From Methanobacteriota archaeon (GTDB lineage: Archaea; JAADCQ01; Methanopyri; Methanopyrales; Methanopyraceae): a DNA stretch of 41,509 nucleotides. The position numbers and the translations under genes were made by a program. Within the stretch, counting starts at the first letter, position 1. Each line of letters starts with the position of its first letter. The stretch lies in NCBI GenBank assembly GCA_027064305.1, contig JAMOPY010000031.1:1-41509 (forward strand). The letters are read 5' to 3'. The notes beneath the pieces are model-generated. The model was not told where the DNA came from. It saw only the letters and a list, made by a program, of their open reading frames with translations, and did no database searches. Shown in pieces: positions 7,391-38,492 of this stretch.

Positions 7391-8539
7391 GTGCCCACCG
7401 TCGTCCCCATCGACGAGTTCTGGGACCTGACCGAGGGCGAGCGCCGCGAGGTGGACGCCGTCACCTGCGCCACCGTCGGCCTCATGAGCGGGGTCTACGG
7501 GATCCTCTCCTTCCGCGTGACCGACCCGGGCGAGGTCCGCCGGTTCCGGGAGGTCGAGCTCGAGGGGATCCGCGTTCCCGTCGGTCCCTGCCCCAACGAG
7601 CGCCTGGGACTGGTCGAGTGCCTGGTCCCCGCGACCCTGCGGGGCAGGATCTCCGGGGCCGAGCTCCTCCGACGGATCGCGGCCGGCCGGGAGTTCCACG
7701 CGGTGGCCGTGGCGGACGACGGGACCGAGCACGAGGTCACCGTCGGTCCCGAGGACCTCGACCGCGCGCTCCTGGCCTCCACCCGCACCTGCTTCCGCAA
7801 CTACACGGCCTTCATCCACGACGGCCCCGAGCCCGAGCGGACCATCTTCGCCCCGAGGCCCCTGCGCCCCGGGGAGGCCGCGTTCAGCGGGTGCGGGGGC
7901 TACAACCCGCTGGAGCACGACCCCCGCCTCCGGCTGCACCGACCGGGCCGACGCGTACTCTTCTGCGGCGCCCCCGCCGTGATCACCGGGACCGGGACCC
8001 GAAGCACCCCCGACCGCCCCAACCTGACCCTCCACGCGGACCTTCGCGAGTGCGACCCGCGGTTCATGGGCGAGTACCGGACGGCGGCCGGGCCGGAGAA
8101 CATCGCGGGCGTGGCCTCGGCGATCGCGGTCACGGAGGAGACGCTCGAGTGGCTGGACCGCCGGCACGAGGACGCGGAGCTCCCCGTGGTCCGCCTCTCG
8201 GACCGCCGCCCCGTGGGCTCGGCCCGGTACTCGGACGTCTGGGTGCAGGAGCGGGTGGAGTGGGACCCGTCCCGGTGCGAGAACTGCGACCCGTGCGCCC
8301 TGGAGGAGCGCTGCCCTTACCCGTACTCGGACGTGCGGTCCGGGGACTGCTTCCACTGCGGGTACTGCGCGGAGTTCTGCCCCGCGGTCCGGGTCCGGAG
8401 GGGCGAGCTCGAGGTGGGCGGGGAGCGGTACCGGGTCGTGGCCCGGGAGTCCTCCGCCCACCTGGCCCGGGAGCTCATGCGGGAGGCCGCCGCGGCCGCC
8501 GAGGAGGGGCGAATAGACCTTTTAACGCCCGGCCGATGA
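7391..8539 (+). CDS. HcyBio/DUF39 protein with ferredoxin-like domain (methanogenesis marker 16 type)
   Basis: The 382-residue product combines an N-terminal DUF39/HcyBio-like region (about 1-270; note VDAVTCATVGLMSG, FSGCGGYNPLEHDPR and ITGTGTRSTPDRPNLTL) with a C-terminal iron-sulfur part. The latter shows Cys clusters CENCDPCALEERC (about 295-307) and CFHCGYCAEFCP (about 320-331). This two-part design fits the family called methanogenesis marker protein 16 and enzymes implicated in homocysteine formation from aspartate semialdehyde and sulfide. The GTG start at 7391 is ten bases after gatC. Function within methanogenesis is not established; the link to sulfur assimilation is known only for relatives. 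The nearby YedF-like gene also points to sulfur or selenium handling. Confidence 0.82.
   Translation: MPTVVPIDEFWDLTEGERREVDAVTCATVGLMSGVYGILSFRVTDPGEVRRFREVELEGIRVPVGPCPNERLGLVECLVPATLRGRISGAELLRRIAAGREFHAVAVADDGTEHEVTVGPEDLDRALLASTRTCFRNYTAFIHDGPEPERTIFAPRPLRPGEAAFSGCGGYNPLEHDPRLRLHRPGRRVLFCGAPAVITGTGTRSTPDRPNLTLHADLRECDPRFMGEYRTAAGPENIAGVASAIAVTEETLEWLDRRHEDAELPVVRLSDRRPVGSARYSDVWVQERVEWDPSRCENCDPCALEERCPYPYSDVRSGDCFHCGYCAEFCPAVRVRRGELEVGGERYRVVARESSAHLARELMREAAAAAEEGRIDLLTPGR
8516..8526 (+). promoter_or_regulatory. Possible TATA element before the yedF leader
   Basis: GACCTTTTAAC near the end of the marker-16 gene resembles an archaeal TATA box. Transcription would start near 8550, leaving a leader of close to 290 bases before the GTG at 8836. 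No other element in the gap is as clear. Confidence 0.3.
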
Positions 8540-8835
8540 GGACTCTTGCCCGGCCCTGAGCGGTGAAGAGTGCGGCGCCGACCGAGGCCGTCACGCTCAC
8601 CACCCGGGGGACGGGCGCGAGCCGGCGACCGCCGCCGATGAGCGCCCGGTACGGCGCCCCGGCACAGCCCCGGCGGGCCCCCTCGACGCCGCGCCGCGTC
8701 GGGATGAGAGGGGGTCCCACGGACCGGGGACACCGGTTCTTTCACGACGAAAACACCGCGGTCAATTCCCATAAACGACCGATCGACTGTTCCCGACTGA
8801 CCGACAATCACGAACAATCGCGGGGGAGGACCCGG
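8540..8835. other. Gap of about 300 bp with an AT-richer 3' half
   Basis: No convincing gene. The in-frame extension of the next gene upstream through this gap gives an Ala/Thr/Arg-rich sequence unlike the acidic proteins around it. The last 90 bases (about 8740-8830) are noticeably richer in A/T and contain several ACCGA/CGACCG repeats. A long leader or small RNA is possible but not shown. Confidence 0.4.
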
Positions 8836-36007: not shown

Positions 36008-36604
36008 TCAATCCCCATGCCTGAGTTTCCACCGTTCGAGCTCCCAGAGCACGTCCCGCACCCACTCACCATCCCGAGTCTTATGCAAGAGGAGTTTCCG
36101 AAGCACCCGATCCGCGAACCACGCCGGCCACGGTCCCAGCACGGACCGAGCGAACCCCGGCGCCCGCTCCAGCAATTTCTTGAGCCTGGTCGAGCCCGAG
36201 GGTTGAAGCTCGAACGCCAACGAGAGCACCCGAGCCACCCGCTTGTGGCTAACATCCCCACTCGAAGCCTCCTCCACCAGCTTCTCTAAGGCGGCCCGCA
36301 GGTGCCGGACCGCGAGTCGGGCCAGCCGCAGCACGAACTCTTCGGATTGCTCCTCCAACCACCGCACGAAGCTCACGCTCTCGTTCTCCTTCCCCAGGTA
36401 GAAGACTCGGGGCAGATCAAACCCCTTGCTCCGCACGCGCTTGAGGTAGGCCACGTAGTACGGCCCGTAGGTCCGACCGCCAATCCGCCGGTACGTGGGC
36501 TTTAGCTCCGGCTTAACCTCACGACGGTAGACCTCTCGGAGCACGCGCAGGACGCGGATACGCTCGACCGGGTCTTGGGGGATGGGCACGCCCTCCCAGG
36601 TCAC
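36008..36604 (-). CDS. Protein of unknown function, possibly mobile-element related
   Basis: A 198-residue basic, helical protein from GTG 36604. The segment YRRIGGRTYGPYYVAYLKRVRSKGFDLPRVFYLGKEN (about 43-79) resembles the short 'G..YGPYYY......YLG' motif common in small proteins of archaeal and phage mobile elements. The rest is helical, with many Arg and Leu (VRHLRAALEKLVEEASSGDVSHKRVARVLSLAFEL). The 1.1-kb array gap lies directly upstream. A DNA-binding role acting on that array would be attractive but is speculation. Confidence 0.6.
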   Translation of the reverse strand: MTWEGVPIPQDPVERIRVLRVLREVYRREVKPELKPTYRRIGGRTYGPYYVAYLKRVRSKGFDLPRVFYLGKENESVSFVRWLEEQSEEFVLRLARLAVRHLRAALEKLVEEASSGDVSHKRVARVLSLAFELQPSGSTRLKKLLERAPGFARSVLGPWPAWFADRVLRKLLLHKTRDGEWVRDVLWELERWKLRHGD

Positions 36605-37742
36605 GGCCCCGGCCCCCTCACGGGCTCGCCCACACCATTGTAATCACCCCGGAGCTTAAAAAAGTTCCGCCTCCCGACGGGCCCCGGACGCGGGGCCGAG
36701 CACCGGTCACCTGACCCTCCGCCATCCCGCCCCCACCGACACGCCGCTCCCGGGCACCCGTAACCCCCGGCACCCACCCTCGCGCCACCACCCGACCCTT
36801 TCCATTGTAACCACCGGGGAGAAGACCCGAACGACCGCACCACCGCCCGCCCGAGACCACCCAATGACGGCGTGGACGTGGGTGCCTACGGCCCGCGCCC
36901 CATCGGCTCCGGACCCTCACACCTCGATAGAGGCACCCGTAGTGACCCGCCCCACGGCATCGCCGCCTTCCCATTGTAATCACCCAAAGAAGGGCCGGCC
37001 CATCTCAGGCGCACCCTCTCTCACCGCCCTGCACGCCCACGGTCCCTTGCGATTACAATGGACGGGAGCCGCCCCCGCCGGAGGCCGGGATCCCGCACCC
37101 CCGGCTCCCAGCGTGACCACCCGGTCCCGACGCACGGCACCCCGGTCACGACCCTCGACCCCGCGACCGAGTACCCGTACCGCACCGGGGGCCGCGGGAC
37201 CCTCCTCCTCACCGCGGTCGACCCGTCGACACCCACGAAACGTCCCGCCGGGATGGACCCGACGACGGTCACCGCGACCCGCGCCCACTGGGGTGGGGCT
37301 GGAGACCACCCCAACCGGGTCGGCGGCTCGCCCCTGCCGGTGGGCCCGTGGGAGCGGGCACCCTCCGGCCGGCGCGGGTCACCGGGTCGGGCATCCTCCT
37401 CCGCCCGCATCCCATTGTAATCACCGTGAAGAAGGCCCCCAAAACGCCGGTGTAGGACCCCACCGGCGCACCCAACCTTCCCGCCCTTCGCGCCCTATCC
37501 CTCGTGATTACAATAGGAAGGGTCGGCCCACACCCGGGGCCGGGGTAGGACCCCCACACACGATCCCGCGCCCGCCCGAACCCGCCCCGCCGAGTCGTCG
37601 CCCGGCGGGCTCGCCTCGGCGTCGTTGGGCCCTCCCTCCTTCGATTACAATAGAAGGGGGCCGCCCCCACCCGAGGCCGGGGCGCGACCCATTCCCAACA
37701 CTTAACTCCCGCCGCCTCACCGTTCCCCCGGGGGTCGCGCGC
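36605..37742. repeat. 1.1-kb gene-free gap with seven CCATTGTAATC motifs
   Basis: No believable gene. The motif CCATTGTAATCACC or close variants occurs on the plus strand at 36635, 36802, 36971 and 37412 and on the minus strand at 37049-37061, 37504-37517 and 37643-37654. The first three are about 167-169 bp apart. Copies at 36971 and 37049, and at 37412 and 37504, form inverted pairs. The three minus-strand copies share about 45 further bases (a GGGCCGCCC-like then GGCCGGGG-rich stretch). Function is unknown; the core is strikingly AT-rich against very GC-rich surroundings. Confidence 0.75.
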
Positions 37743-38492
37743 GTGAGGTGGGCGCTCCCCCTGACGCTCGCGATCGTCGTCCTCACCCTCCCCACGACCT
37801 CCCACAGCGCCCCGCCCTGGGTGAACCCGGAGGAGCCGGAGCCGGCCCCGCCGACCGACGCGCCCGAGCTGACGCTCACCCCGGACCAGCTGCGGAAGCT
37901 CGAGGATCTGGGCGTCCCGGTGATCTACCTCAACGGGCGGCCGGCGGTCAAGATCCGGCTCGCCCGGGTGAACGCGCCGGAGATCTTCCACCCACGGGAC
38001 GAGCGGGAGCGCGAGCTGGGCCTCCGGGCCAAGCGGTTCGTCGAGGAGCAGGTCCGGCGGGCCGGCGGCTGGGTACGGTGCCGGGCCTACGGGCTCGGTA
38101 AGTACCGGCGGATCATCGCGGACGTGTACCCGGACGACGAGGACGTGACGCTCGCGGAGCTCCTCGTCGAGCACGGGCTCGCCGAGTGGCGGCGGTACCC
38201 CAAGCCCGACCCGCTGCCCGACTGGTTCCCGCGGGAGTTTCGGGCCCGCGTGGCCCGGGTCGTGGACGGGGACACCCTCTACGTCTACGTCCGGGTCCGC
38301 GAGCACCCCGCCGGTCAGCCGGCCGCCGAGACCCACCGCCGGACCGCCGAGTCCACCGAAACCGCCACCGAGACCGGCCGGGAGGTCGTCATCGGCCGGT
38401 ACCGCACCGGGGTCCCCGCCGCGACCGTCGGCGTCGCCGCCCTCCTCGCGGGGCTGGGACTCGCCCTCCTGACCCTCGCCCGCCGATCCTAA
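37743..38492 (+). CDS. Surface-anchored nuclease-like protein with circularly permuted SNase motifs
   Basis: The 249-residue protein has a signal peptide (MRWALPLTLAIVVLTLPTTSHS), a Pro-rich spacer, an SNase-like domain (about 55-188) and a C-terminal membrane segment (VGVAALLAGLGLALLTLARR). SNase motifs are all present but in altered order. VIYLNGRPAVKIRLARVNAPE comes first (Arg72 and Glu80 matching Arg35 and Glu43 of staphylococcal nuclease; the Asp40 position is Asn77). Then come ELGLRAKRFVEEQV and KYRRIIADVY...LLVEHGLAEW (Arg123 matching Arg87). Only then, at the end, comes ARVARVVDGDTLYVYV with Asp175 and Asp177, which normally opens the domain. Activity is plausible but the Asn77 change may weaken calcium binding. 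Confidence 0.75.
   Translation: MRWALPLTLAIVVLTLPTTSHSAPPWVNPEEPEPAPPTDAPELTLTPDQLRKLEDLGVPVIYLNGRPAVKIRLARVNAPEIFHPRDERERELGLRAKRFVEEQVRRAGGWVRCRAYGLGKYRRIIADVYPDDEDVTLAELLVEHGLAEWRRYPKPDPLPDWFPREFRARVARVVDGDTLYVYVRVREHPAGQPAAETHRRTAESTETATETGREVVIGRYRTGVPAATVGVAALLAGLGLALLTLARRS

What the first reader, a model, noticed from the sequence alone, without database searches (positions are those of the whole stretch)
37743..38492. Circularly permuted, surface-anchored staphylococcal-nuclease domain
All SNase landmarks are present once, but the order is rotated. The RL..xxAPE motif (Arg72, Glu80) and the YxR...LVxxGLA motif (Arg123) come first, and the opening strand with DGDT (Asp175, Asp177) comes last. 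The N-terminus starts at the strand that normally follows DGDT, so this looks like a circular permutation rather than a truncated tandem repeat. The protein also has a signal peptide and a C-terminal membrane segment, so the nuclease would sit on the cell surface. The Asp40 position is Asn77. Motif positions are seen in the sequence; the permutation and location are inference.
Basis: partly seen in the sequence, partly recalled or inferred. Interest (0 to 1): 0.72.

Follow-up and report, generated by a model that had tools for sequence, protein, structure and literature searches.

The report
Naturally rearranged nuclease in Methanopyrus
A probably secreted enzyme of the heat-loving archaeon Methanopyrus appears to be a staphylococcal-type nuclease whose first strand, carrying the metal-binding residues, has moved to the end of the protein, and no other genome we sampled has the parts in this order.

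Summary
Window 37743-38492 (+) encodes one 249-aa protein of a Methanopyrus-group archaeon in which the SNase parts occur once each, in rotated order: RL..NAPE, YxR, GLA, then DGDT. A profile of canonical SNases rotated at the strand 2/3 turn matches it as one domain (75.3 bits). The canonical-order profile breaks into two pieces (55.6 and 13.3 bits). All five Methanopyri genomes share the order, and the DGDT block is as conserved as the core. Six-frame scans find one N-part and one C-part per locus, so no second degraded domain is hidden. AlphaFold2, fed canonical rows that never joined the two parts, gives a compact domain (pLDDT 94.9, pTM 0.88). No SNase inspected elsewhere shares the order, and no listed PDB or viral model aligns end to end at low rmsd. 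The permutation is therefore well supported. Catalysis and surface location are inferred. A signal peptide plus C-terminal membrane anchor also occurs on canonical archaeal SNases, and Asn at the Asp40 position is common, so neither is special. It is a new variant of a known family.

The parts
37743..38492 (+). Permuted SNase gene, 249 aa, GTG start
   Evidence: ORF and translation; Pfam SNase
37743..37811 (+). Probable signal peptide, residues 1-23
   Evidence: Hydropathy, best 19-residue mean 1.49; different but hydrophobic N-termini in G001, G003 and G004
37881..37931 (+). N-terminal helix (residues 47-55) and short extra strand (60-63) in front of strand 3; no conserved metal-site Asp here
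   Evidence: AF2 DSSP; conserved in five genomes
37938..37961 (+). Strand 3 with Arg72 (Arg35 of S. aureus nuclease)
   Evidence: invariant
37971..37982 (+). NAPE: Asn77 (Asp40 position) and Glu80 (Glu43)
   Evidence: Invariant in five genomes; Asn also in canonical relatives
38001..38171 (+). Helix 1, strands 4 and 5 with Arg123 (Arg87), helix 2
   Evidence: C-part profile 58.3 bits at residues 71-151; DSSP
38193..38234 (+). Linker (residues 151-164) joining the old C-terminal side to strand 1; helix 3 of the canonical fold is missing
   Evidence: Alignment and DSSP; resembles YPNEFNPDDW of canonical archaeal SNases
38235..38288 (+). Transposed strand 1-DGDT-strand 2 block with Asp175 and Asp177 (Asp19 and Asp21)
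   Evidence: N-part profile 21.9 bits at residues 165-182; single copy in six frames
38298..38420 (+). Variable Thr/Glu-rich stalk
   Evidence: 22-59% identity among relatives
38421..38480 (+). C-terminal hydrophobic segment followed by basic residues
   Evidence: Best 19-residue mean 2.18

Best explanation
The protein is a naturally circularly permuted SNase-family nuclease. The domain starts just before strand 3 and runs strand 3, helix 1, strand 4, strand 5, helix 2; then a proline-rich linker replaces helix 3 and leads into strand 1 and strand 2 at the C-terminus. Strand 1 closes the OB barrel from the other end of the chain and delivers the metal-binding Asp pair next to Arg72, Glu80 and Arg123. 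It probably arose by tandem duplication followed by loss of the first copy's strand 1 and the second copy's remainder, which leaves the partial double strand 2. It most likely acts as a secreted, membrane-tethered, divalent-metal-dependent nuclease on extracellular nucleic acid. Shown: rotated order, conservation, single copy of each block. Predicted: fold. Inferred: barrel closure, catalysis, location, route of origin.
For: Rotated profile gives one domain hit of 75.3 bits (model 8-113 of 115), while the canonical order gives 55.6 + 13.3; a canonical control protein shows the mirror image. The order is shared by five Methanopyri genomes, two of them single-contig. Strand 1-DGDT-strand 2 is 70-90% identical among genomes, like the core (69-89%), while the following tail is 22-59%. 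One copy of each block in six frames at all five loci. AF2 with canonical fragments entered as separate rows: pLDDT 94.9, pTM 0.88, all five models above 94, with the C-terminal strands at about 97. A viral SNase-like model superposes on 86 columns at 2.1 A while colinear alignments of more than 120 columns are at 7 A or worse, as expected for a permuted order. Catalytic positions R72, E80, R123, D175, D177 all kept.
Against: Contacts between the DGDT block and the core were not measured, since no coordinates or order-independent aligner were at hand. The confident model used an alignment deepened with canonical fragments; with five Methanopyri rows alone only one of five models was fair (pLDDT 70). 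G001 carries a one-base frameshift in the domain and G002 one in the signal peptide, which may be sequencing errors or decay. No activity data exist.
Confidence: 0.85

Rival explanations
1. A truncated tandem repeat: one SNase domain that lost strand 1, followed by the vestigial start of a second domain that does no structural work.
For: The partial double strand 2 shows that a tandem stage is a plausible ancestor.
Against: The DGDT block is under the same constraint as the core in all four genomes compared, whereas the sequence right after it is not; no remnant of the lost pieces in any frame; the model gives the block high confidence within one compact domain.
Confidence: 0.07
2. A domain-swapped dimer: the C-terminal hairpin completes the barrel of a second chain, not its own.
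For: SNase is known to support engineered domain swapping (PMC5347425).
Against: The monomer model is compact with pTM 0.88; no dimer was tested.
Confidence: 0.08
3. A permuted but catalytically dead SNase fold used for binding nucleic acid or protein (compatible with the permutation; a rival only to the nuclease function).
For: Asp40 position is Asn; two genomes carry frameshifts.
Against: All other catalytic and metal positions are invariant, and Asn at this position occurs in about half of the canonical archaeal SNases inspected.
Confidence: 0.2

Closest known systems
Canonical SNase family (Pfam PF00565; thermonuclease Nuc of Staphylococcus aureus)
   Same: All family blocks and catalytic positions except Asp40; OB-barrel fold predicted; Pfam score above cut-off
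   Different: Strand 1/DGDT/strand 2 moved from N- to C-terminus; helix 3 missing; extra N-terminal helix
Secreted, C-terminally anchored archaeal SNases (e.g. loci L029, L030, L167)
   Same: Signal peptide, SNase domain, low-complexity stalk, C-terminal membrane segment, YP...W-like motif after GLA
   Different: Canonical strand order
Plant CAN nucleases (PMC3505149)
   Same: Membrane-associated SNases with an unusual domain arrangement
   Different: Their domain is split by an insertion, with N-part still before C-part; lipid-anchored
Engineered SNase with a duplicated segment (alternate frame folding; PMC5347425)
   Same: Sequence meant to close the SNase barrel in a circularly permuted way
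   Different: Designed; normal and permuted forms compete; the paper says that design was still being tested

Membership tests
SNase superfamily (PF00565) | Sequence score above the curated cut-off | tested here: met
   34.3 bits vs 21
SNase superfamily (PF00565) | Metal/catalytic residues (Asp21, Arg35, Glu43, Arg87) | tested here: met
   D177, R72, E80, R123 conserved; S. aureus numbering from general knowledge
SNase superfamily (PF00565) | Asp40 | tested here: not met
   Asn77 in all five; also Asn in about half of 12 canonical archaeal ORFs, so not a defining feature
SNase superfamily (PF00565) | Strand order beta1-beta2-beta3-alpha1-beta4-beta5-alpha2 | tested here: not met
   Rotated order; hence a permuted variant, not a canonical member
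SNase superfamily (PF00565) | OB barrel closed by strand 1 | tested here: inconclusive
   AF2 pLDDT 94.9, pTM 0.88, contacts not measured
SNase superfamily (PF00565) | Metal-dependent nuclease activity | not testable with these tools
   Needs an assay
Secreted membrane-anchored archaeal SNase | Signal peptide and C-terminal membrane segment | tested here: inconclusive
   Met by hydropathy in the window; G004 lacks the C-terminal segment, G002 has a frameshift in the signal peptide

The most novel reading that the evidence does not exclude
The residual strand 2 copies at both ends compete for one place in the barrel, so the protein is a natural alternate-frame-folding switch whose nuclease activity is gated, for example by temperature, calcium or membrane tethering.
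Probability: 0.07. Interest if true: 0.8.

Novelty: new variant of a known kind. Interest (0 to 1): 0.55.

Why it matters
S. aureus nuclease is a standard model of protein folding, and the permuted forms of it that I know of are laboratory designs. A natural, genus-wide permutant that must fold in one of the hottest-growing organisms known would show where evolution can cut this barrel, and it gives a ready test of whether strand 1 can be supplied from the other end of the chain without losing the active site. It also warns that a canonical profile reports such a protein as a partial SNase lacking its metal site.

Tried and rejected
Degraded tandem domains: looked for in six frames at all five loci, none. 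Candidates elsewhere for the same order: matches lacking the N-part and matches running furthest were fetched and read; all were canonical, frameshifted, cut by an insertion or partial. Relatives in viral contigs, plasmids and phages: no colinear match. First AF2 job with only five Methanopyri rows: mediocre; its alignment held two rows from genome-search loci, which the tool accepted. Genomic neighbours are not conserved enough to suggest a pathway: an ornithine cyclodeaminase-family gene follows in G000, other genes in G002 and G004. Literature searches for a natural permuted SNase found none in the held open-access library.

Full report
What is there. The window is contig C31 of a 1.21-Mb Methanopyrus-group genome (relatives carry the titles 'Euryarchaeota archaeon' and 'Methanopyri archaeon'; that G002 is M. 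kandleri itself is my guess from its size). Positions 37743-38492 (+) encode 249 aa: signal-peptide-like start, acidic proline-rich linker, an SNase-like domain, a Thr/Glu-rich stalk, and a C-terminal hydrophobic segment ending in ARRS. Pfam finds only part of an SNase domain at 70-154, and an NCBIfam model of the nuclease EcnA matches the DGDT strand alone at 165-184, with its own first 23 positions.

Is the order really rotated? I extracted 102 distinct canonical SNases from neighbouring archaea and viral contigs, aligned them, and cut the alignment after strand 2. With the columns in canonical order, the protein matches in two pieces (69-151, 55.6 bits; 166-185, 13.3 bits). With the two halves exchanged it matches as one domain (69-183, 75.3 bits, model 8-113 of 115). 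A canonical protein does the reverse. Neither half-profile exceeds 5.4 bits on 1000 shuffles. The N-terminal region that would hold strand 1 in the normal order is predicted to be a helix, and its residues aligned to Asp19 and Asp21 are not conserved Asp.

Is it one domain or the wreck of two? At all five loci, six-frame scans find exactly one credible strand 1-DGDT block and one RL-GLA block. The DGDT block is as constrained as the core (70-90% identity against 69-89% across the pairs), while the sequence right behind it drops to 22-59%. A vestige would not be expected to keep that pattern. The partial second copy of strand 2 at the N-terminus does suggest that the permutation arose through a tandem duplication; that is inference.

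Structure. With only Methanopyri sequences AF2 gave one fair model of five. With canonical viral SNases added as separate N- and C-fragments, so that no canonical row links DGDT to the core, all five models exceeded pLDDT 94 and the best has 94.9 and pTM 0.88. DSSP elements map one to one onto the SNase fold: strand 3 66-73, helix 1 87-106, strand 4 110-118, strand 5 124-129, helix 2 137-143, then strand 1 165-175 and strand 2 178-182. Helix 3 is absent; the new N-terminal helix 47-55 may fill its place (inference). Order-bound Foldseek finds SNases best, but aligns 96 columns at 3.4 A (TMt 0.57) or slightly more columns at above 5 A; in the viral library 86 columns superpose at 2.1 A, whereas alignments above 120 columns are at 7 A or more. 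This is the pattern expected of a permutation, and it also means that no listed entry of either library has the same strand order. Direct contacts were not available to me.

How widespread? It is the only SNase found in the five Methanopyri genomes, and the order is the same in all five, with G001 broken by a one-base frameshift. A genome-contig scan found only two Methanopyri (the window's own or very near records may be left out there). In 394 genomes of a neighbouring phylum, 176 have SNases. In a sample of 394 archaeal genomes, 152 match the rotated profile, five of them Methanopyri; no listed match outside Methanopyri runs through to the DGDT end of that profile, and the outliers that I fetched are canonical or partial. 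The match lists were cut, so rare exceptions may be missed. Bacteria were sampled only through plasmids, phages and viral contigs.

Function. Arg72, Glu80, Arg123 and the Asp pair are kept, so a Ca2+-dependent nuclease is the likely function. Secreted canonical SNases with stalk and C-terminal membrane segment exist in other archaea (L029, L030, L167), so the likely role, degrading or scavenging extracellular nucleic acid at the cell surface, is shared with them and not new. Gene neighbours differ among strains and give no more specific role.

Prior knowledge. Full-text searches found engineered SNase switches with a designed permuted form (PMC5347425) and plant SNases with an inserted segment (PMC3505149), but no natural permutant. 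The held library omits most subscription journals, so this is not proof of absence.

Noticed in passing
window 36625-37690: Seven short repeats built on GATTACAAT (three on +, four on - including one variant) within 1.1 kb just upstream of the gene. The extended pattern GATTACAATNNNANGG occurs nowhere else in this genome or in four relatives; one plain copy lies upstream of the same gene in G003 (L012:5672).
   Followed up: partly
L005 around 1920-1930 (G001) and L003 around 2145-2155 (G002): One-base frameshifts in two of five homologues, one inside the nuclease domain and one in the signal peptide, in otherwise conserved genes: decay or sequencing error.
   Followed up: no
L013 / L004 (G004): The G004 homologue lies on a 12.8-kb contig near a ParA-like gene and lacks the C-terminal membrane segment; the contig may be a plasmid or provirus.
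   Followed up: no
window 36008-36604 (-): DUF1678 gene next to the nuclease in G000 and G002 (Pfam) and a similar ORF in G003, with changed relative orientation in G002.
   Followed up: partly
window 8532-8587 (+): C/D box guide RNA sR47 exactly at Rfam's gathering score.
   Followed up: no
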